Source: Methanococcoides sp. EBM-47 | Lineage (GTDB): Archaea; Halobacteriota; Methanosarcinia; Methanosarcinales; Methanosarcinaceae | Direction: 5' to 3' | NCBI GenBank assembly: GCA_001896725.1 | Contig: MPPA01000001.1 | Span: 62,001-126,000 of the forward strand | Length of the DNA stretch: 64,000 nucleotides | Part shown: positions 7,814-17,888 of the stretch, piece by piece | Layout: each line of letters opens with the position of its first letter | Numbering within the stretch: position 1 is the stretch's first letter | Position numbers and translations under genes: made by a program | Notes under the pieces: model-generated | What the model was told of the DNA's origin: nothing | The model's input: the letters and a program-made list of their open reading frames with translations, nothing else | Databases searched by the model: none

Positions 7814-8089
7814 TTATTTAATATATAGGCCACATCTGCAGGACCCACGCAATTCTATATCGCGGCTCCTGGCTGCACAGGGACAGATGATCTTCTTATC
7901 AACTTCTTTATCCCCCGTCCTCTTCTGGCAGAAGCAATACCATTCTCCATATTGCTTCTTATTGTTGGATATACCCTTTATTGCTGTAACTATTATATCA
8001 TAGTCAGGGTTCAACCTATACCCGGATTGGATTGCATTTTTCTTAGATCTTTCAAAAAACTCCTCTTCAAGTGGTGTGCCTAATTGCAT
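7814..8089 (-). CDS. Ferredoxin:disulfide (thioredoxin) reductase catalytic subunit
   Basis: 91 residues from ATG 8089, chosen because AAAGGAG lies seven bases upstream. Three Cys-x-Cys pairs (CFC, CPC, CRC) with spacings of 14 and 12 residues match the family of ferredoxin:thioredoxin reductase beta subunits, in which a [4Fe-4S] cluster next to a redox-active disulfide moves electrons from ferredoxin to a disulfide partner. The plant spacing is about 16 and 8, so this is the archaeal variant. It is the third gene of the rubrerythrin-fprA unit, 43 bp after fprA, which suggests a job in repairing oxidised thiols after oxygen exposure. No alpha subunit or thioredoxin is adjacent. Confidence 0.85.
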   Translation of the reverse strand: MQLGTPLEEEFFERSKKNAIQSGYRLNPDYDIIVTAIKGISNNKKQYGEWYCFCQKRTGDKEVDKKIICPCAARSRDIELRGSCRCGLYIK

Positions 8090-8132
8090 GATATCACTCC
8101 TTTGTTCCAAGACTATTCCTTTATAATGTGAT

Positions 8133-9335
8133 TTATTCCTTTGCAAGGGAAGCAAGCCGTTTTCCGATCTCCCTGCACTTTGCTCGGTCCTCTTCAAATG
8201 GTCTGAAGTTAACCTGGAGCCCAGGTTCAGAGATCTCAAAACCTGATTCTATGAGTTCTTTCTCAACCCCTTTCACTGCACCGCCACCCCATCCATAAGA
8301 GCCGAAAACAAAGAACTTCTTGTTCTTTGGCCTGAGTCCTTTTATGTAACTAAGGAACCCCGCAACGGTAAAGAACATACCATTGTTCAGCGTAGGGGAG
8401 CCTATGGCAACTACTGACGCATCCATTAGCTCTGTTGTTATCTTGCTCCAGTCGTTATTACGCAGGTTCCTGAGTTTCACATCCACCCCAGCGGATTGCA
8501 CGCCTTCCAGGATCTCTTTTGCCATTATCTCAGTGCTGTTCCACATTGTATCGTACACTATGAGCACCTGTGGTTTTGTCTCAGCATTTGCCCATTTAAC
8601 ATAGGATTCTATTATCCTTTCAGGTTCCTTTCTCCATATCACTCCGTGTGCAGGGACTATCATATCGAACTTAAGCCCCATCTGTTTTACCTTTTCAGCA
8701 TATCCAAGTACCTGTTTACCAAAGGGCATGAGGATGTTAGCATAATATATCTGAGCATCCTCCATAACTCCTTCCACCTGATCTTCGAACCTTTCCGAGG
8801 TTGCTATATGCTGGCCGAACGCATCATTTGAGAAAAGTATCCTGTCTTCCTTGAGATATGTGTGCATGCTGTCAGGCCAATGGAGCATCACAACCTCAAT
8901 GAACTGCATGGTCTTTTTTCCGATGCTGATCTCATCACCGGTCTTAACTACCTGTATGTCCCATTTTTCAAATCCCATCTCACGATAATGCTCGTAAAGC
9001 CCCTTTTTACCTTTAGCAGAGCAAACTAGCTTTGCCTTTGGAGATGCTTCCATCATTGCAGGCAAAGAGCTGGAGTGGTCCATCTCCACATGGTTAGACA
9101 CAATGTAGTCTATCTTTGAAGGGTCCACAATCTGGGAAATCCTGCCCAACATCTCTTCAAAGAAAGGTGCTTTTACAGTATCGATAAGAGTTATCTTTTC
9201 ATCAATTATCAGATATGTATTATAGCTCCCCCCCTTCGGTGTCTCATATCCATGGAAATCCCTCAGGTTCCAGTCAATAGCACCTACCCAGTAAATGCCT
9301 TCGGATATCTGCACAGTTTGTAGATCATTGTCCAA
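8133..9335 (-). CDS. fprA: F420H2 oxidase / flavodiiron protein FprA
   Basis: 400 residues. The N-terminal metallo-beta-lactamase-like domain binds the di-iron centre: H82-x-E84-x-D86-H87, H152 and D171 are visible, with a further His in VPAHG. The C-terminal flavodoxin domain (starting around VLIVYDTMWNSTE) binds FMN. In methanogens FprA takes electrons from reduced F420 and reduces O2 to water. The gene sits between rubrerythrin (14 bp upstream) and the ferredoxin:disulfide reductase, forming a coherent oxygen-stress operon. Confidence 0.93.
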   Translation of the reverse strand: MDNDLQTVQISEGIYWVGAIDWNLRDFHGYETPKGGSYNTYLIIDEKITLIDTVKAPFFEEMLGRISQIVDPSKIDYIVSNHVEMDHSSSLPAMMEASPKAKLVCSAKGKKGLYEHYREMGFEKWDIQVVKTGDEISIGKKTMQFIEVVMLHWPDSMHTYLKEDRILFSNDAFGQHIATSERFEDQVEGVMEDAQIYYANILMPFGKQVLGYAEKVKQMGLKFDMIVPAHGVIWRKEPERIIESYVKWANAETKPQVLIVYDTMWNSTEIMAKEILEGVQSAGVDVKLRNLRNNDWSKITTELMDASVVAIGSPTLNNGMFFTVAGFLSYIKGLRPKNKKFFVFGSYGWGGGAVKGVEKELIESGFEISEPGLQVNFRPFEEDRAKCREIGKRLASLAKE

Positions 9336-9349
9336 TCATATCCCTCCTT

Positions 9350-9841
9350 TTATGTCTGCATCCTGAACTCTGTAGAGGCCTGCAGCATTTCATCTATAAG
9401 CCTGTAATGTTCTCTTTCCGCTGCAGCTATCCTGTCAAAGAACTCTTTTTGTTCAGGATCTGTTGCTCTTCTTCCAAGTTCCATATAGAAATATTCGCTT
9501 TTGTATTCAAAGCGTAAGGCAGCAAGCAGGATGCCTATTTCCTCAAGTTTCTTGTCAGAGAACTCCTGTGTCAGAGAAGGAGTAAAGTCTGGAAAGTGGT
9601 GTTTTACATGTGCAGCTTTCTTATCTCCATTCTTGAATTTCCTAAGCATCTCAGCATGTTTTTTTTCTTCCTCTGCAAGGAATGCATACATTTCACGAGC
9701 GGCTGGATTTGTCATCGAGCCTGATTTTTCAAGATAGTATGCCATACCGTCCTCTTCAAGCTTGATAGCTACATCAATGGCCTCTTCCAATGTATCCAAC
9801 TGGTCAAGTTGCTCAGAAATCTCCTCTAATACATCTTTCAT
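9350..9841 (-). CDS. Rubrerythrin/ferritin-like di-iron protein
   Basis: 163 residues. Two helical pairs carry the di-iron ligands: an early Glu in KLEEDG, then EEEKKHAEM (ExxH), then EYKSEYF, then AAEREHYRLI (ExxH). No rubredoxin-type CxxC domain is present, so this is an erythrin-like peroxidase without the rubredoxin tail. It leads an operon with fprA and the disulfide reductase. GGGAGATG lies upstream of the ATG. A nine-base inverted repeat at 9862-9886 lies just upstream and is likely the operator. Confidence 0.88.
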   Translation of the reverse strand: MKDVLEEISEQLDQLDTLEEAIDVAIKLEEDGMAYYLEKSGSMTNPAAREMYAFLAEEEKKHAEMLRKFKNGDKKAAHVKHHFPDFTPSLTQEFSDKKLEEIGILLAALRFEYKSEYFYMELGRRATDPEQKEFFDRIAAAEREHYRLIDEMLQASTEFRMQT

Positions 9842-9861
9842 TATTAGTCATCTCCCTGATT

Positions 9862-9886
9862 TTATCTATATTGATCGTATAGATAA
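9862..9886 (-). promoter_or_regulatory. Inverted-repeat operator of the rubrerythrin-fprA operon
   Basis: TTATCTATA-N7-TATAGATAA, a perfect nine-base dyad. A TATA-like element (ATATTTATT on the minus strand, near 9905-9915) lies 20-45 bp upstream of it, so the dyad should cover the transcription start, which is the usual place for an archaeal repressor site. The regulator is unknown. Confidence 0.55.
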
Positions 9887-10114
9887 GTATGTATGGCTGA
9901 AGACCAATAAATATTCCCCACACATTCTGACCATAATTACAAATCACATTACTTCTAGAAATATATTTTACATTTTGTACGATCGGCCTATCAATTGAAA
10001 GACAAGTCAGTGAACATATGTTAGAAACCTTTTTATTACCTCGTCTCCATTATGAAGTTTAAATTTATCATGTGGTATCATATTCTTCAATTCTTTTGAT
10101 CATGAGGTAATCTA

Positions 10115-11218
10115 ATGGGCAAAATAAAGATAGCTATTGCTGGAATTGGTAACTGTGCCAGTTCGCTCATTCAGGGTATTGAGTATTATAAAGATAAATC
10201 TCCAAAGGATGCCATTGGGCTGATGCACTGGGACCTGGGCGGTTACAGACCTTTTGATATAGAAGTAGTAGCTGCTTTTGATGTAGATGAAAGAAAAGTT
10301 GGAAAGGACTTATCAGAAGCAGCCTTTGCTCTGCCCAATTGCACCACTGTGTTCTGTTGCAATGTTCCCAGAACAGGGATCACTGTAAAGATGGGAAAGG
10401 TGCTGGATGGAGTTTCAGAACACATGGCAGATTATACAAATTCCCGTAAGTTCATTGTCTCAAAGGCACCTGAATCGGAAAAAGAGCAGATTGTCAAGGA
10501 ATTGAAAGATTCTGGGACTGAGGTCCTTTTGAACTACATGCCAGTAGGATCGGAACTGGCTACCCAGTTCTATGCTGAATGTGCTCTTGAAGCAGGTGTA
10601 GCATTTGTTAACAATATGCCTGTTTTCATCGCAAGCAACCCAACGTGGGCTACCCGTTTTGCTGAAAAGGGTATCCCTATAATAGGGGATGACATCAAAG
10701 CCCAGCTTGGTGCTACAATCACACACCGCACCCTTGTTGATCTTTTCCGCAAAAGAGGCGTCAAACTTGAAAGAACATATCAGCTGAATACAGGTGGTAA
10801 CACTGATTTCCTTAATATGTTAAATCGAAGCAGGCTTGCCTCTAAGAAAGAGTCAAAGACAGAAGCTGTACAGTCTGTCGTAGGGGAACGTCTGGACGAT
10901 GATAACATACATGTGGGTCCAAGCGATTATGTACCCTGGCAGAACGACAATAAAGTATGTTTCCTCAGAATGGAAGGCAAGCTATTCGGTGATGTACCCA
11001 TGAACATTGAGCTGCGCCTCTCAGTGGAAGATTCCCCAAATTCTGCCGGTGTGGTCATTGATGCTATAAGGTGCTGCAAGCTTGCCCTGGACAGAGGTAT
11101 CGGTGGCATACTCTATTCCCCTTCTGCATATTTCATGAAACATCCTCCCAAGCAGTTCACTGATGATGAAGCTTACAATATGACCCTTGAGTTCATTAAA
11201 GGTACCAGGGACAACTAA
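10115..11218 (+). CDS. ino1: Myo-inositol-1-phosphate synthase
   Basis: 367 residues. The N-terminal NAD-binding fold begins IAIAGIGNCASSLIQG, the archaeal/actinobacterial form of inositol-1-phosphate synthase; later conserved stretches include the QLGATITHRTL region and LNTGGNTDFLNML. The enzyme isomerises glucose 6-phosphate to inositol 1-phosphate using an internal NAD redox cycle, giving head groups for archaetidylinositol or compatible solutes. It is the first gene of a plus-strand pair; the next gene starts 4 bp after its stop. Confidence 0.93.
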   Translation: MGKIKIAIAGIGNCASSLIQGIEYYKDKSPKDAIGLMHWDLGGYRPFDIEVVAAFDVDERKVGKDLSEAAFALPNCTTVFCCNVPRTGITVKMGKVLDGVSEHMADYTNSRKFIVSKAPESEKEQIVKELKDSGTEVLLNYMPVGSELATQFYAECALEAGVAFVNNMPVFIASNPTWATRFAEKGIPIIGDDIKAQLGATITHRTLVDLFRKRGVKLERTYQLNTGGNTDFLNMLNRSRLASKKESKTEAVQSVVGERLDDDNIHVGPSDYVPWQNDNKVCFLRMEGKLFGDVPMNIELRLSVEDSPNSAGVVIDAIRCCKLALDRGIGGILYSPSAYFMKHPPKQFTDDEAYNMTLEFIKGTRDN

Positions 11219-11222
11219 ACGC

Positions 11223-12038
11223 ATGTTCCTTGTTCCTGGTAAACGTGATATTTTCGGTGTGGATTTTAGTGGTGAAAAAGATGCTTACAATAAGATCTGG
11301 CTCAGCCAAGGGCGGATAAAAGGTGAAAGGTTACAGCTTGTGAACTGTTATCCTCTAAGCGAAGTAAGTTCAGGCAGGATTGCCAGGGAACATTGCTTTC
11401 ATATTTTACTTGATATTATATGTTCTAATAAAAATTCAATTTTTGGCATGGATTTTCCTTTTGGGATCCCCCTTCCGCTCATGCAGGGGTTCAGCTGGAA
11501 TGAGTTCATAAGGCATTTCCCGGAAATCTATGCCAATGAAGATGAGTTCATAACTATAAACCGCAGACTTTCGGGCAACATTGAGCTCAAAAGGACAACG
11601 GACAGAGAGGTAAAGGCTCCTTTTTGTGTCTATAACCTAAGAATGTACAGGCAGACCTATTTTGGTATACGGGATATCATAAGACCTCTTGTGGTCTCAG
11701 ATGCTGCCAGCATTTTACCCATGCATCCAATTAGAATGGATGTACCATGGCTTATGGAAATATGCCCGGCATCAACTCTGAAAAAGGAGGGAGTGTACTT
11801 ACCCTATAAAGGTAAAAGAACAAAAGAACGAACATCCAGGGAACATATTCTGGACCATCTTGAAAGAAATGCATTGGAGCTACCTAATGAAATAAGAATG
11901 AAGGCTCTACAAAATGTTGGCGGTGATGCCCTGGACAGCATCATAGCAGCGTATTCTGTATTCAATGTCCTGCACACACTGTTCCGGCAAAAAGAAATAT
12001 GCGAACCCTATATATATGAAGGGTTCACTTTTGTTTGA
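11223..12038 (+). CDS. DUF429-like protein (predicted RNase H-fold)
   Basis: 271 residues from ATG 11223; an in-frame upstream start would overlap ino1. The pattern IFGVDFSGEK near the N-terminus, SIFGMDFPFGIP further on, and a C-terminal GGDALDSIIAAY are the acidic landmarks of the DUF429 family, related to RNase H-fold nucleases. The biological role is unknown. It follows ino1 by 4 bp and is probably cotranscribed with it, but a functional link is not evident. Confidence 0.6.
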   Translation: MFLVPGKRDIFGVDFSGEKDAYNKIWLSQGRIKGERLQLVNCYPLSEVSSGRIAREHCFHILLDIICSNKNSIFGMDFPFGIPLPLMQGFSWNEFIRHFPEIYANEDEFITINRRLSGNIELKRTTDREVKAPFCVYNLRMYRQTYFGIRDIIRPLVVSDAASILPMHPIRMDVPWLMEICPASTLKKEGVYLPYKGKRTKERTSREHILDHLERNALELPNEIRMKALQNVGGDALDSIIAAYSVFNVLHTLFRQKEICEPYIYEGFTFV

Positions 12039-12042
12039 AAGC

Positions 12043-12588
12043 TCATTCTTTGGAAATACCCATTATTCTATATAGGTCCTCGGGACTGTTAAGTATTGTA
12101 ATGTTCTCCATACGGGACAACTTTTCAGTGTTCTCTACATCAGTATCTCTCATTTTGAGTTTCAATTCCTTTCCGCTGGGAGCATATGTTATCACTGTTC
12201 CCTTTTGTCGGTCTACAGGAAGAATATAAATGGGTGTCTCGCCTTTAGCTGTTTGTGCAACGGCATTTGTCACAAGTGTATCAGCAATACCATGGACTAT
12301 CTTTGCCACAGTGTTAGCCGTAGCAGGTGCAATTATCAGCATATCATAATGCCCAATCTGCAAAGGTCCTGCAATGAATGGGGAATTTGGGCCAGCATCT
12401 GTTTTGAAGTTAGGGAAATCCCTCTGTATGTCGTCCCACATATGGTACCACTTCATAACCGTTTCCCCTTCTTTAGAAAGGAACACCATGAATTCAATAT
12501 TTGTTTTTTCCTTAATGTAGACCATTGCATCATAAGTCTCTTTTATAAGATCTCCTGAACCTGTTATTCCCCATGCTATCCTTTTCAT
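12043..12588 (-). CDS. afpA: Archaeoflavoprotein AfpA
   Basis: 181 residues. The Rossmann-like flavoprotein fold starts with RIAWGITGSGDLI and contains the conserved LIIAPATANTVAKIVHGIADTL region that binds FMN in this family. AfpA was described from Archaeoglobus and Methanosarcina as an FMN protein that accepts electrons from ferredoxin. Here it is the last of eight co-oriented redox genes, 16 bp after the FAD/NAD reductase, so an electron carrier function inside that locus is likely. It is convergent with the DUF429-like gene. Confidence 0.88.
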   Translation of the reverse strand: MKRIAWGITGSGDLIKETYDAMVYIKEKTNIEFMVFLSKEGETVMKWYHMWDDIQRDFPNFKTDAGPNSPFIAGPLQIGHYDMLIIAPATANTVAKIVHGIADTLVTNAVAQTAKGETPIYILPVDRQKGTVITYAPSGKELKLKMRDTDVENTEKLSRMENITILNSPEDLYRIMGISKE

Positions 12589-12604
12589 ATCATCTCTCCA
12601 CTTA

Positions 12605-13303
12605 TCAGTACCCTGCCAATTCTTCTTTCTTTATCATATCCTTTGGGATGTTCATTGCAGACAACATTTCTTCCATGGACCTGACCATTTCAGGCGGGCC
12701 ACATATCAGGAAATGCCTGTCCCTATAATCTGGTATTTCACGGACCACCATGTTCTCGCATATACGTTCTCGGCAACCTGTCCAGCTTTCCGATGCACGG
12801 GTCAGGGTGTACACCACTTTTAAATTACTGTTGTTGCGCATCATCTCGTCAAGTTCTTCCCTGAAGGCAAGGTCGCTCTCGGTCTTATTGCTGTATATCA
12901 CCATAATATCAGTATCGAGACGCATGTCAGTACAATATCTGCATATGCTTATCATGGGAGTGATACCTATCCCTCCGCTCAGCAATGCCACTTTTGCATA
13001 CTCCCCTTCGAAGATCATCTTCCCGAAAGGTCCGCTAATTACGGCACTGTCCCCTACTTTCATATTGTCAAGGACTTCTGAGAACGGGTGGCCGGTAAGT
13101 TTTTTAGTGAACTCTATATGGTCTTTCTCGGTAGGACTGCTGGAAAGACTAAAGGCCTTTGTAACTACTTTCCCTTCCACTGTAAGGCTCACAAGTATGT
13201 ATTGGCCGGGTTTAAAATCAAAATCTTCAGGCCGCCTGAATCTGAAGCTCTTTACATCATGCGTCCTTTTTATGATATCGATCGTTTTTTCTTCGAACTT
13301 CAA
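12605..13303 (-). CDS. Ferredoxin-NAD(P)+ reductase-type FAD oxidoreductase
   Basis: 232 residues of the FNR superfamily. FKPGQYI and TKAFSLSSSP mark the FAD domain, the latter being a variant of the RxYS motif with Lys and Phe. SGGIGITPM and LICGPPEMV mark the NAD(P) domain. There is no C-terminal [2Fe-2S] domain, so the iron-sulfur partner must be a separate protein: the ferredoxin and iron-sulfur flavoprotein genes just upstream are obvious candidates. Its start overlaps the stop of the iron-sulfur flavoprotein gene by 4 bp, which indicates translational coupling. Confidence 0.85.
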   Translation of the reverse strand: MKFEEKTIDIIKRTHDVKSFRFRRPEDFDFKPGQYILVSLTVEGKVVTKAFSLSSSPTEKDHIEFTKKLTGHPFSEVLDNMKVGDSAVISGPFGKMIFEGEYAKVALLSGGIGITPMISICRYCTDMRLDTDIMVIYSNKTESDLAFREELDEMMRNNSNLKVVYTLTRASESWTGCRERICENMVVREIPDYRDRHFLICGPPEMVRSMEEMLSAMNIPKDMIKKEELAGY

Positions 13304-13938
13304 TGTACCCCTTCCCGCTGAGCCATTTTGATCAGTTGGGCGGCCCTGATCAGTTTATTTACCGTTCGATGAAGGCTTCTTATACCCTCACTATCCTCAG
13401 ATACTCCTTCCGCTCCCCTATCCTGAGACCAGAAAGTCCCTCCAAGATTTGAACCAAATGAGCCTCCGGCAATGGGTAGCATCTCACTGATCGTATAAAA
13501 GTTCAATATATTCTGTATAGCGGGCTCCTGTCCTCCCATCCTGTCACCTCCCACCGCTGTTGCAGCACCCACTTTATATTTAAAGGCCTTTGGATCACGG
13601 GCCACAACCGCTCTGCATCTGTCCATTATGGTCTTCGTCTGTGCACTTAGTGTGCCCTGATACACAGGAGTGCCTATGATCCAGGCATCAGCCCACAGCA
13701 TTTTTTCATATAATGGCACTATATCGTCCTTGTGGATACACCCTTGCTGCTTGCGCACACAATAATCACAGTGGATACAGAACTTTAGGTCTTTTCCACT
13801 GGCAGAGAAAAAATCTGTTTCAACATTGAATTTCTCTTGGGCATATTTCAGAGCCTCGTTTACTACATATTCCGTGGCTTTCTTCCTAGGACTTCCCGAT
13901 ATTCCAAGCAATCTGATAGTAGCATCACCTGTCATCAA
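13300..13938 (-). CDS. isf: Iron-sulfur flavoprotein (NADPH-dependent FMN reductase family)
   Basis: 212 residues. The flavodoxin-like core begins GISGSPRK and includes WIIGTPVYQGTLSAQTK, the FMN-binding loop. The compact cysteine motif CIHCDYCVRKQQGC (spacing 2, 2, 6) matches the [4Fe-4S] site of Methanosarcina Isf, which takes electrons from ferredoxin and can reduce O2 and H2O2 in vitro. It overlaps the downstream FNR-type gene by 4 bp and follows the ferredoxin by 32 bp. An alternative start is one codon later (13935). Confidence 0.88.
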   Translation of the reverse strand: MMTGDATIRLLGISGSPRKKATEYVVNEALKYAQEKFNVETDFFSASGKDLKFCIHCDYCVRKQQGCIHKDDIVPLYEKMLWADAWIIGTPVYQGTLSAQTKTIMDRCRAVVARDPKAFKYKVGAATAVGGDRMGGQEPAIQNILNFYTISEMLPIAGGSFGSNLGGTFWSQDRGAEGVSEDSEGIRSLHRTVNKLIRAAQLIKMAQREGVH

Positions 13939-13970
13939 GACACTCCTTTGTATATCCTATTTATCCATGC

Positions 13971-14162
13971 TCATTCGATGGTTATTGCTCCCATGGGGCA
14001 CGCATCTATACACAATCCACAGTCTATACAATTGTCCGGATGTGCGACCACAGATTTTAGATTCCCTTTTCCATCATCTTCCAGTTCAAAGACGTCCTCT
14101 GGACACACTTCCTTACATGCTCCTATTCCATCACATACGTCCGGATCTACTTTTGCTGTCAT
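13971..14162 (-). CDS. Small ferredoxin with one incomplete cluster motif
   Basis: 63 residues, a two-cluster bacterial-type ferredoxin. The C-terminal motif CIDCGLCIDACP is a complete [4Fe-4S] site. The N-terminal motif reads CDGIGACKEVCP: the second cysteine of CxxCxxC is replaced by Ile, so this site has three cysteines plus one from the other motif and is expected to hold a [3Fe-4S] cluster or a differently ligated cubane. It lies between the cytochrome c and Isf genes and is the natural electron donor or acceptor of the locus. Confidence 0.9.
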   Translation of the reverse strand: MTAKVDPDVCDGIGACKEVCPEDVFELEDDGKGNLKSVVAHPDNCIDCGLCIDACPMGAITIE

Positions 14163-14222
14163 TTTTCTTACCTCCTGTTACATACTGCCAAGCTGTGATT
14201 TACAGCCCGGAATAAATCTCGA

Positions 14223-15626
14223 TCAGATTTTCCTTCTTTCCATGTAATAATGTGCTGCGCAGAGCAAGATAGTTGCAGTCCCTAGTATCCCAACTCCTGG
14301 AGTTGCTGGTATTGTCGTTTCCGTTGATGTCTCCCCATCCTCATAGATGTTTACAGACATCTCTGCTATACTAAGGACAGGTACTTCATGTACTTTTTCT
14401 CCGAAAAGATGGTCAATTAGATCTTGCGGTGCTGAGCGATACTTAAGTGTTGCATCCAATGCAAGTGGATATGTCACATCATCAGGTATTCTGAAGGTAT
14501 GTTTTTCTGAAACTGTTCCTCTGGGGGGAATTCTGTTATCTTCAAGTATTGATTGAGCAAGCCAGAAACTAAGGGTCGGCTGTCCCTGAGCATCACCAAG
14601 AACGGTATTATAAATCTTTGCATCACCAACAGTTCCATTAGCATTAACATCTCCAGTATTGTATACTTGTCTGCCACTGGCATCCTTTACTCTTACAGCC
14701 AGCCACATCTGCCTGATCTCAGAAACTCCTGTGGGTATTTTGTGCCCAGCTCCTGAATTGGTAATAGATATGTTCAGACTGATGTTATCTCCTCTCTGGC
14801 CCATCTGCAGTGAATCAATGGAAAGAGTTGCTGCCTTTTCAAGGCGCTCTGCAGCCATTTTTCCATATCCCTTTTCTCCAAGGACCTCTGGTATAAAGGC
14901 ATTGCCACCCACTATTTCATGAGTGGAGATATGTTCTCTTTTTTTTGCACCGGAGCCCGCTCTACCAGGATTTGCTACAAATTTGGTTATGCCCGAGGTC
15001 ATGTGACAGTCCTGGCATACAACACCTTCTTTGGCATAGGGTCCTTCCTTCCAAACAGTGTATGTATCATCAACAACAAGACCATTTAGAGGATGTGTCA
15101 CATAATGGCACATGCCACAGTATTCCGAAGTGGTATACAATTCCAGGTATTTTGAGCCATGATATGCAGACTTTGAATCATCAAAGGGCCCCCACTTGAC
15201 GTTACCCGGACTGACAACAAAAGGTGCATTACCTGTACCGTTGCTACCGGATATAACATGACAAATATCACATTGTACACCCTCTCTTGCAATGGAACTA
15301 AGACCTGATCCGTCTATTGGCGGTATCTCGCCCGATACAACACCTATGGGAGTATGGCATCGGGAGCAAAATTCATCCACTATGCCCTGTGTATCACTGC
15401 TTGCAGCTAGAACCTCCTTCTGATAGAATGGGTCCTCGTAAGCGTTGTAATGCATGGTGCCTTTCCACTGTTCATAGGTAATGGCATGACATTGTGCACA
15501 CTTATTACTGCTGGCGAACATATCAGAGGATAGATTTCCATGTGCATTGGGCAGTGCTGCAAGTGTATTGGAAGTTATCATGTACACTGTTACCATTACT
15601 AACATTATCACGTATGTGGTTCTCAT
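14223..15626 (-). CDS. Exported five-haem c-type cytochrome with membrane/sorting tail
   Basis: 467 residues. An N-terminal signal peptide (residues 1 to about 25, ending near NTLAALPNA) is followed by five CxxCH haem sites at C43, C87, C119, C170 and C204. Residues 260-420 are rich in beta strand and lack haem sites. The C-terminus has a Thr-rich linker, then PGVGILGT, a hydrophobic helix and YMERRK, like the PGF-CTERM signals processed by archaeosortase. The architecture resembles, but I cannot prove identity with, the Methanosarcina cytochrome MmcA. No rnf genes are adjacent; instead a ferredoxin and flavoproteins follow. It probably has its own promoter. Confidence 0.85.
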   Translation of the reverse strand: MRTTYVIMLVMVTVYMITSNTLAALPNAHGNLSSDMFASSNKCAQCHAITYEQWKGTMHYNAYEDPFYQKEVLAASSDTQGIVDEFCSRCHTPIGVVSGEIPPIDGSGLSSIAREGVQCDICHVISGSNGTGNAPFVVSPGNVKWGPFDDSKSAYHGSKYLELYTTSEYCGMCHYVTHPLNGLVVDDTYTVWKEGPYAKEGVVCQDCHMTSGITKFVANPGRAGSGAKKREHISTHEIVGGNAFIPEVLGEKGYGKMAAERLEKAATLSIDSLQMGQRGDNISLNISITNSGAGHKIPTGVSEIRQMWLAVRVKDASGRQVYNTGDVNANGTVGDAKIYNTVLGDAQGQPTLSFWLAQSILEDNRIPPRGTVSEKHTFRIPDDVTYPLALDATLKYRSAPQDLIDHLFGEKVHEVPVLSIAEMSVNIYEDGETSTETTIPATPGVGILGTATILLCAAHYYMERRKI

Positions 15627-15663
15627 AGCTCTAATACATCGTACCCCCTCAACAATACGTGTG

Positions 15664-15676
15664 GTATAATAAAATA
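15664..15676 (-). promoter_or_regulatory. Probable TATA element of the cytochrome gene
   Basis: On the minus strand the sequence reads ATTTTATTATACC about 40-50 bp before the ATG at 15626, inside a 104-bp gap that also holds a hairpin. This suggests that the cytochrome and downstream genes can be transcribed separately from the DUF2180-AhpD genes. Confidence 0.35.
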
Positions 15677-15698
15677 TGATCTATCAGATCTCAATGGA

Positions 15699-15719
15699 AG
15701 GCCATCTGAATGATGGCCT
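15699..15719 (-). terminator. Hairpin between the AhpD-like gene and the cytochrome
   Basis: AGGCCATC-TGAAT-GATGGCCT is a perfect eight-pair stem with a five-base loop, 11 bp after the stop codon of the AhpD-like gene. No T run follows, so it may be an RNA processing or attenuation structure and not a full terminator. Confidence 0.4.
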
Positions 15720-15730
15720 CCTGGGAAGAT

Positions 15731-16096
15731 TCATTTCAGCAGTCTCAGAGCATCCCTGCATGCTGCAACGGCAGGCGCACCGGAAGTAATAGATATCACA
15801 TCCATCGTTTCCATAATCTCTTCCTTGGTAGCACCATTCTCTAGTGCACTCTTCATCTGGGATATCACACATTTTTCGCATTGTTTGGACGCTACTATGG
15901 CAAGTGCCATAAGTATCTTGACCTTCGCAGGTAGTGCTCCATCTTGTAATAATCTGCGGTTACACCTGTTATATTTAGTCAGGAACTCTGGTTCCAGCTC
16001 TCCAAGGGTTTCAAGTATCTGTGGGGTAAACCCGAGTTTCTCGGACATCGATCTTAAAAGTTCTTTATCCTTTAACATATCGTAGTGTTGGGTCAT
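15731..16096 (-). CDS. AhpD-like / carboxymuconolactone decarboxylase family protein
   Basis: 121 residues, all helical. The redox-active pair is visible in [11 protein letters not shown] as Cys-x-x-Cys with the [11 protein letters not shown] segment after it, the standard core of AhpD-like proteins. Family members act as thiol peroxidase partners or reduce peroxiredoxin adaptors; others are decarboxylases without the Cys pair. The neighbours (DUF2180 zinc proteins, iron-sulfur flavoprotein, multihaem cytochrome) favour a redox function. It starts 24 bp after the stop of the second DUF2180 gene. Confidence 0.82.
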
Positions 16097-16120
16097 TTCT
16101 TTCTCTCCTGCATGGTCCGA

Positions 16121-16342
16121 TCAATCAAATCCATCTTCTATTATCTGGCTGATGCAATAATTACACACAAGTCTTGGCAGACCTTTTGGCAATCTCTTAA
16201 CATCGGGGGGTGTTCCTACGGTCACCGGGAGTTCCAGTTCCTTTGTATGGTGCATACACAAACCCTTACCGCAAGTGATACAGATGCATACTGCATTAGA
16301 ATCCTTTTCAGTCTCCATACAATCATAACATTTCATCATCAT
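16121..16342 (-). CDS. DUF2180 small zinc-ribbon-like protein, copy 2
   Basis: 73 residues with ten cysteines or histidines arranged as KCYDC, CICITCGKGLCMHH and CNYC, a pattern expected to bind two zinc ions. This is the DUF2180 family, known mainly from methanogens and of unknown function. The start could be any of three successive ATG codons after AGGTGAT. It follows the first copy by 5 bp, and the two are diverged tandem paralogues sharing the KCYxC / CGxGxC framework. Confidence 0.8.
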   Translation of the reverse strand: MMMKCYDCMETEKDSNAVCICITCGKGLCMHHTKELELPVTVGTPPDVKRLPKGLPRLVCNYCISQIIEDGFD

Positions 16343-16347
16343 ATCAC

Positions 16348-16593
16348 CTAGTAGTTTTCCTTCACAGCTTTATGACAGGGTATGCAGAGCACTTTTTTCC
16401 AGCGGTTTATATCATTAAGTTTACATTCCACTCCCATACCGCACCTTAGCTTGATACTATATTCTCCTTCCCAGATGGGGGTTTCTTCTCTGACGAGATG
16501 GTCCTTGCAAACTCCTCTCCCACAAATTATACAAGCAGCAACTGTGTCTGCATCTTTTTCGGCTTTAGCACATTCGTAGCATTTCATAGGCAT
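16348..16593 (-). CDS. DUF2180 small zinc-ribbon-like protein, copy 1
   Basis: 81 residues from ATG 16593 (GAAAGAGTG precedes it; the frame is open further upstream but without a ribosome-binding site). Motifs KCYECAKAEKD, CIICGRGVCKDH and CIPCH are those of DUF2180. Its C-terminal part is longer than in copy 2, with an extra Cys-containing segment (KLRCGMGVECK). As the first gene of the eight-gene redox unit it may be a sensor or a partner protein. No function is known for the family. Confidence 0.78.
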   Translation of the reverse strand: MPMKCYECAKAEKDADTVAACIICGRGVCKDHLVREETPIWEGEYSIKLRCGMGVECKLNDINRWKKVLCIPCHKAVKENY

Positions 16594-16762
16594 CACTCTT
16601 TCTTTTTCTTGTTCAAGATAAAAACATACCAATCAATCCTCTTGTTTGGATCATCACATTTTCTCCCAGAAAAAGGGTTTTCCCATTTCACCCCCAAGCG
16701 AATTGAACATTATTCTTTATGTCAATTGATATATTTGTATTGGTTAATTTTCAGGAGAACAG

Positions 16763-16783
16763 TTGTCTAATTATAATTGACAA
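16763..16783. promoter_or_regulatory. Near-perfect dyad in the mer/DUF2180 intergenic region
   Basis: TTGTC-T-AATTATAATT-GACAA: outer arms TTGTC/GACAA flank the palindrome AATTATAATT, with one extra T on the left. It lies about 90 bp upstream of the mer TATA box and about 170 bp upstream of the DUF2180 gene, so it could serve either unit. Confidence 0.4.
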
Positions 16784-16852
16784 TGCAAGATGATATGTAT
16801 CTTCGGTGAGTGTATTAGCTGCAAGTGCAAATATAATGTTAAACCAACAAAC

Positions 16853-17888
<1,036 letters not shown>

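What the first reader, a model, noticed from the sequence alone, without database searches (positions are those of the whole stretch)
12043..16593. Eight-gene redox locus joining soluble flavoproteins to an exported multihaem cytochrome
Eight co-oriented genes are packed with gaps of -4 to 104 bp: two DUF2180 zinc proteins, an AhpD-like thiol protein, a five-haem cytochrome c with signal peptide and tail anchor, a two-cluster ferredoxin with one altered site, an iron-sulfur flavoprotein, an FNR-type reductase and an archaeoflavoprotein. Known biochemistry: AfpA and Isf take electrons from ferredoxin; FNR enzymes link NAD(P)H or FAD to ferredoxin; multihaem cytochromes of methanogens can move electrons outside the cell. 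Inference: this is a self-contained route between the cytosolic ferredoxin/NAD(P) pool and an outer-surface cytochrome, or a detoxifying system in which electrons reach O2, peroxide or an extracellular acceptor. I know of no description of this complete set.
Basis: partly seen in the sequence, partly recalled or inferred. Interest (0 to 1): 0.8.

Follow-up and report, generated by a model that had tools for sequence, protein, structure and literature searches.

The report
Methanogen oxygen-defence operon with pentahaem cytochrome
These eight genes are a methanogen's version of an already described oxygen-stress gene cluster, and the five-haem surface cytochrome inside it keeps turning up beside oxygen-detoxifying genes across several archaeal lineages, so it more likely helps protect these anaerobes from oxygen than wires them to the outside world.

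Summary
All eight genes are real and lie where claimed (minus strand, 16593→12043; gaps -4 to 104 bp). The order is conserved across Methanosarcinaceae: DUF2180-DUF2180-AhpD-like lies upstream of the cytochrome in 26 of 27 family loci. It is the orthologue of the M. acetivorans MA4664/MA3734-3743 cluster, published as a putative oxidative-stress operon. The AhpD-like protein is MdrA: its four cysteines match. Relatives add superoxide reductase, rubrerythrin and F420H2 oxidase; the window's own rubrerythrin + F420H2-oxidase pair lies at 8133-9841.

The alternative, detoxification, is supported.

Not found described in the held literature: the pentahaem cytochrome sits in separately arranged oxygen-defence islands in Methanosarcinaceae, ANME-1/Methanolliviera and Methanoperedens. 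Its only convincing full-length fold match is Thermochromatium tepidum pentahaem c552. Four, not five, non-motif histidines are invariant, so one haem may be open for catalysis. Best reading: oxygen/peroxide defence operon whose cytochrome acts outside the membrane; its activity is untested.

The parts
16348..16593 (-). DUF2180 zinc-ribbon-like protein a (81 aa), first gene
   Evidence: PF09947 E 1.6e-20; conserved first position in relatives
16121..16342 (-). DUF2180 protein b (73 aa)
   Evidence: PF09947 E 2.2e-19; conserved
15731..16096 (-). AhpD/CMD-fold protein, orthologue of MdrA (protein disulfide reductase)
   Evidence: PF02627; Cys 45, 73, 76, 113 = M. acetivorans 39, 67, 70, 107 plus a constant offset of 6
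15696..15721 (-). hairpin in the AhpD-cytochrome gap (11-bp stem), possible RNA processing or attenuation site
   Evidence: conserved in 5 genus members; 2 pairs with two-sided changes, one of them in the 11-bp stem
14223..15626 (-). pentahaem cytochrome c: signal peptide, 5 CXXCH, beta-rich GHKIPTG domain, PGF-CTERM-like tail
   Evidence: 105-homologue alignment; AF2 model pLDDT 84.5; fold match 5ze8
13971..14162 (-). ferredoxin with a Cys-deficient first cluster site
   Evidence: present only in some genera
13300..13938 (-). iron-sulfur flavoprotein (Isf-like)
   Evidence: PF03358 E 1.6e-30; compact CX2CX2CX6C motif
12605..13303 (-). FNR-type FAD/NAD(P)H reductase without Fe-S domain
   Evidence: PF00970, PF00175; missing from Methanosarcina clusters
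12043..12588 (-). archaeoflavoprotein AfpA
   Evidence: TIGR02699 270 bits, cut-off 192; homologues in 149 of 150 genomes of the order
9350..9841 (-). rubrerythrin-like protein, further member of the conserved unit
   Evidence: PF02915 E 1.4e-12; conserved next to the oxidase
8133..9335 (-). F420H2 oxidase (flavodiiron protein FprA/FpaA)
   Evidence: PF19583 ODP + Flavodoxin_1; 57% identical to the M. acetivorans protein
16728..16744 (-). conserved promoter-like block ACCAATACAAATATATC (BRE/TATA) upstream of the first gene
   Evidence: conserved in 11 Methanomethylovorans/Methanolobus upstream regions

Best explanation
The locus is the Methanomethylovorans form of the Methanosarcinaceae oxygen-defence cluster. 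In the cytosol, Isf, AfpA, the FNR-like protein and the odd ferredoxin move electrons from ferredoxin/NAD(P)H to O2 and H2O2, with the nearby rubrerythrin and F420H2 oxidase. MdrA resets oxidised protein thiols, and the DUF2180 zinc proteins are accessory. The pentahaem cytochrome is a separate, exported arm: held on the outer face by a PGF-CTERM-type tail, it probably takes electrons from the methanophenazine pool or another carrier and reduces an oxidant (peroxide, superoxide, O2 or NO) before it enters the cell. Shown here: gene identities, synteny, repeated association with oxygen-defence genes, fold, histidine pattern. Inferred: co-regulation, electron donors, the oxidant, and the cytochrome's activity.
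For: Gene order conserved in 26 of 27 Methanosarcinaceae loci for DUF2180-DUF2180-MdrA-cytochrome. The orthologous MA4664/MA3734-3743 is published as a putative oxidative-stress operon that includes an FpaA homologue; L143 matches it in order and in MdrA cysteines. SOR directly upstream of the cytochrome in Methanosarcina, g4, g13 and G037; rubrerythrin inserted before AfpA in g3, g4, g6, g7 and g14. ANME-1/Methanolliviera loci place the cytochrome among Fur, rubrerythrin, SOR, catalase, peroxiredoxin and ferritin; Methanoperedens places a divergent flavodiiron gene beside it. The arrangements fall in separate parts of the cytochrome tree. PGF-CTERM-type tail and archaeosortase. MA3739 deletions show no EET phenotype.
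Against: No O2- or peroxide-response data for the cytochrome gene were found. Most bacterial relatives are not next to oxygen genes. Neighbours with no obvious oxygen role (mer, frhB, ino1) are equally syntenic in the family, so order alone within the family proves little. MsvR does not bind the tested promoters of the M. acetivorans cluster. The hairpin may split the transcript. MA3739 is upregulated with AQDS. No electron donor for the cytochrome is encoded in the locus, and no NapC/NirT family member is found in the genome.
Confidence: 0.72

Rival explanations
1. Extracellular electron transfer: the soluble flavoproteins and the cytochrome form one chain from ferredoxin/NAD(P)H to an outside acceptor.
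For: The cytochrome is exported and anchored; MA3739 is up 4.1-fold with AQDS and up 80% in the mmcA mutant; flavoproteins and ferredoxin are co-oriented with it.
Against: No membrane-crossing partner in the locus; the soluble set persists without the cytochrome; MA3739 deletion has no effect on AQDS reduction, DIET or Fe(0) use; the neighbours are oxygen-detoxification genes.
Confidence: 0.1
2. The cytochrome is a nitrite, hydroxylamine or NO reductase (nitrosative defence), like relatives in the c554/NrfA/pentahaem c552 class.
For: Pfam Cytochrome_C554 and weak NrfA/NrfH hits; only convincing full-length fold match is T. tepidum pentahaem c552; four invariant distal-type His for five haems leaves room for an open haem.
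Against: No CXXCK site; no nitrogen-oxide genes seen beside it; archaeal neighbours are superoxide and peroxide genes. Not exclusive of the best reading.
Confidence: 0.15
3. The cytochrome is a bystander: linkage is an ancestral accident and it has no role in oxygen defence.
For: Non-oxygen neighbours (mer, frhB, ino1) are equally conserved in the family; bacterial relatives are mostly elsewhere.
Against: Different oxygen-defence genes flank it in different arrangements in ANME-1, Methanoperedens and Methanosarcinaceae. Where SOR is single-copy it is often the adjacent gene.
Confidence: 0.12

Closest known systems
M. acetivorans oxidative-stress cluster MA4664/MA3734-3743 (Isom et al. 2013, PMC3729527; Lessner & Ferry 2007, not held, from memory)
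   Same: Same genes in the same order: DUF2180 pair, MdrA, pentahaem cytochrome, Isf, AfpA, rubrerythrin, F420H2 oxidase (L143)
   Different: The window adds a ferredoxin and an FNR-like reductase, lacks SOR at this place, and its rubrerythrin-oxidase pair is separated by two divergent genes
Thermochromatium tepidum pentahaem cytochrome c552 (PDB 5ze8)
   Same: Full-length fold match, E 1.7e-19, TM 0.57/0.68; five haems plus a C-terminal domain with an HxxPTG motif
   Different: 18% identity; bacterial; its gene context was not examined here
ExtKL / MccSep multihaem cytochrome c selenoprotein (PDB 9wt8, 9wt9)
   Same: Similar architecture with GHxIPxG in the C-terminal domain
   Different: Weak score far below the NCBIfam cut-off; the selenocysteine position (U325) corresponds to Val301 here
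MmcA (MA0658), the M. acetivorans EET cytochrome
   Same: Exported multihaem c-type cytochrome of the same family of methanogens
   Different: Seven haems, linked to Rnf, required for Fe(0) and DIET electron uptake; the pentahaem MA3739 is not

Membership tests
Methanosarcinaceae oxidative-stress cluster (MA4664/MA3734-3743) | DUF2180 pair, MdrA, pentahaem cytochrome, Isf and AfpA in this order | tested here: met
Methanosarcinaceae oxidative-stress cluster (MA4664/MA3734-3743) | F420H2 oxidase (FpaA) and rubrerythrin at the end | tested here: met
   Present at 8133-9841 but separated by two divergent genes
Methanosarcinaceae oxidative-stress cluster (MA4664/MA3734-3743) | Superoxide reductase in the cluster (not a defining feature across genera) | tested here: not met
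   No SOR in the locus; two SOR genes elsewhere in the genome. Genus-level variation, seen in other genera too
Methanosarcinaceae oxidative-stress cluster (MA4664/MA3734-3743) | Induction by oxygen or peroxide | not testable with these tools
   No expression data held
MdrA protein disulfide reductase | Cys 39/67/70/107 pattern with CXXC | tested here: met
   Window Cys 45/73/76/113, constant offset 6
MdrA protein disulfide reductase | Fe-S-controlled disulfide reductase activity | not testable with these tools
   needs purified protein
Iron-sulfur flavoprotein (Isf) | FMN_red fold with compact CX2CX2CX4-7C motif | tested here: met
Archaeoflavoprotein AfpA | TIGR02699 above cut-off | tested here: met
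   270 bits against 192
ExtKL/MccSep cytochrome selenoprotein | Selenocysteine and score above the NF040886 cut-off | tested here: not met
   45.7 against 250 bits; Val at the Sec position
Extracellular electron transfer conduit | Exported, surface-anchored multihaem cytochrome | tested here: met
   Signal peptide, PGF-CTERM-type tail, archaeosortase in the genome; the window's own tail itself hits no model
Extracellular electron transfer conduit | Membrane-crossing electron donor encoded with it | tested here: not met
   None in the locus; no NapC/NirT family member in the genome
Extracellular electron transfer conduit | Loss abolishes reduction of, or uptake from, outside partners | not tested
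   Published for the orthologue MA3739: no effect on Fe(0) use, AQDS reduction or DIET

The most novel reading that the evidence does not exclude
The archaeal pentahaem c552-like cytochrome is a surface-bound enzyme that destroys peroxide, superoxide or O2 outside the cell, fed from the membrane carrier pool: an unrecognised extracytoplasmic arm of oxygen defence in methanogens, ANME-1 and Methanoperedens.
Probability: 0.4. Interest if true: 0.75.

Novelty: new member of a known kind. Interest (0 to 1): 0.45.

Why it matters
How strict anaerobes such as methanogens and methane-oxidising archaea survive oxygen is an open question with consequences for methane emissions. The cytochrome in this locus has, in the papers found, been tested only for wiring cells to outside partners, with negative results. 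The comparative evidence points to a different and directly testable job, using a deletion strain of M. acetivorans that already exists. If right, it would also warn against reading every exported multihaem cytochrome in an archaeal genome as evidence for extracellular electron transfer.

Tried and rejected
MsvR-box search (TTCGN7-9CGAA) in 8000-17500: no match, in line with the published lack of binding. Sigma-70 and terminator scans: no more than chance (archaeal promoters are not covered). NapC/NirT donor in the own genome: none. Full text of Lessner & Ferry 2007 is not held. Literature on MccSep and on DUF2180 with Methanosarcina: nothing relevant. Haem geometry could not be measured: the predicted model gives no coordinates here and no haems. 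A genome-wide CXXCH scan was too unspecific to count cytochromes. Selenoprotein reading rejected: Val at the Sec position. AfpA as a marker of the system rejected: homologues in 149 of 150 genomes of the order.
Full report
OBSERVATION. All eight ORFs are at the stated coordinates on the minus strand with gaps of 5, 24, 104, 60, 32, -4 and 16 bp. The cytochrome has five CXXCH motifs, a signal peptide (by eye) and a tail that aligns with PGF-CTERM tails of relatives; two relatives pass the Pfam cut-off, the window's own 'TPGVGIL...' tail does not. The genome encodes the matching archaeosortase. The ferredoxin does lack one cysteine of its first cluster, and the same site is I, V or S in its orthologues, so this is a conserved feature and not an error; a [3Fe-4S] cluster there would be an inference.

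SYNTENY. The window's genome is probably a Methanomethylovorans: a same-genus genome (G005) has a 2,428,904-bp contig, which I recall as the M. hollandica chromosome, and named Methanomethylovorans contigs in the public collection match same-genus genomes G001 and G004 (L064/L047 and L117/L039). Of 60 genomes searched, 33 encode the cytochrome. In 26 of 27 Methanosarcinaceae loci the order DUF2180-DUF2180-MdrA-cytochrome is kept; the exception is a short contig with a second copy (L011). Isf and AfpA follow in 24 of the 25 loci that extend that far. Ferredoxin is present in 13 of them, FNR is missing from Methanosarcina-type clusters, and a rubrerythrin gene is inserted before AfpA in several genera. 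Mer, FrhB-like and ino1 neighbours are about as conserved, so order within the family is weak evidence of shared function on its own.

IDENTITY WITH A PUBLISHED CLUSTER. G149 (5,751,492-bp contig, I infer M. acetivorans C2A) carries DUF2180-DUF2180-MdrA-SOR-cytochrome-Isf-AfpA-rubrerythrin-F420H2 oxidase (L143). Its AhpD-like protein has Cys 39, 67, 70 and 107, the residues I recall for MdrA (Lessner & Ferry 2007; text not held); the window protein has the same four with a constant offset of 6. Isom et al. 2013 call MA4664/MA3734-3743 a putative oxidative-stress operon and name MA3743 as an FpaA homologue; MsvR did not bind its tested promoters. In the window the F420H2 oxidase and rubrerythrin lie at 8133-9841, past a divergent pair of genes, so the unit is larger than the finding.

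THE CYTOCHROME IN OTHER LINEAGES. A scan of public genomes found more than 500 relatives; the best 80 come from archaea and many bacterial phyla. In ANME-1/Methanolliviera/Methanophagales loci the cytochrome is followed directly by a desulfoferrodoxin-type SOR and surrounded by Fur, a rubrerythrin half, catalase, peroxiredoxin and ferritin, often with a NapC/NirT-type pentahaem protein. In Methanoperedens a flavodiiron gene lies divergently beside it. In Methanosarcina, g4, g13 and G037 SOR is directly upstream, and there it is the only SOR of the genome. With one SOR among roughly 2,000-4,000 genes, adjacency by chance is about 0.05-0.1% per independent event (rough estimate, mine). The cytochrome tree puts the SOR-downstream, flavodiiron-divergent and SOR-upstream arrangements in separate places; the SOR-downstream group is one side of a branch at 99 support, while the SOR-upstream loci need three changes. 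Bacterial relatives mostly lack such neighbours, with exceptions (L122, L136, L137, L140, L141), so the association is an archaeal pattern, not a rule of the whole family.

STRUCTURE. AlphaFold2 gives a confident model (mean pLDDT 84.5). The only convincing full-length match in the PDB is the pentahaem c552 of T. tepidum. Among 105 homologues nine histidines are invariant apart from gaps: five from CXXCH and H59, H156, H236, H295; H232 (96/105) and H178 (91/105) are not invariant. Five haems and four invariant extra histidines leave room for one open or variable haem, as needed for an enzyme, but this is not proof.

MECHANISM. I take the cytosolic proteins as the ferredoxin/NAD(P)H-driven branch (Isf reduces O2 and H2O2 in published work, recalled; the paper is listed among the references seen), with MdrA as thiol repair. 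The cytochrome is a separate outside arm. No gene here links it to the cytosolic pool, no NapC/NirT donor is in the genome, and the soluble set, or part of it, exists without the cytochrome in L144, L146, L147, L152 and L154. This argues against a single chain. Published MA3739 deletions have no EET defect although the gene responds to AQDS and to loss of mmcA. AQDS and redox-cycling conditions could themselves be a stress signal; that is speculation.

REGULATION. A BRE/TATA-like block upstream of the first gene (16728-16744) is conserved in 11 upstream regions of two genera. The 104-bp gap before the cytochrome holds an 11-bp hairpin conserved in five members of the genus with a few compensatory changes; it may mark a processing or attenuation point, so a single eight-gene transcript should not be assumed.

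VERDICT. Real, well conserved and largely known as an oxidative-stress cluster. The EET interpretation is unlikely. The new element is the repeated link between this pentahaem cytochrome and oxygen defence across archaea, which gives a clear experiment.

Noticed in passing
window 15696-15721: Conserved hairpin between the MdrA and cytochrome genes with compensatory changes in the genus.
   Followed up: partly
L102:4726-10379, L107, L111, L116: ANME-1 oxygen-defence islands: Fur, NapC/NirT-type pentahaem protein, rubrerythrin half, pentahaem cytochrome, SOR, catalase, peroxiredoxin, ferritin.
   Followed up: partly
L051:10082-13316 (cytochrome orientation); L062 likewise: TusA-like, DsrE-like, NifS-like and an IscU-thioredoxin-reductase-like fusion gene directly follow the cytochrome in genus g4 and family f2 (identified by eye, not by HMM).
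   Followed up: no
L108:5250-5765: Desulfoferrodoxin (SOR) with a lipoprotein-type signal (MTSGC) near the cytochrome in Methanolliviera: a possible exported SOR.
   Followed up: no
L039 (G004) and L040 (G017): The cytochrome gene is split into two overlapping frames in two draft genomes; frameshift or sequencing error not resolved.
   Followed up: no
L156:1093-2580: Second multihaem cytochrome gene in the window's own genome (495 aa, at least five CXXCH); family not determined.
   Followed up: no
L157:1871-2712; L158:2358-2825: The own genome's two SOR genes: one sits beside a DsrE-like gene resembling the one in the ANME-1 islands, the other has the extra cysteines of methanoferrodoxin.
   Followed up: no
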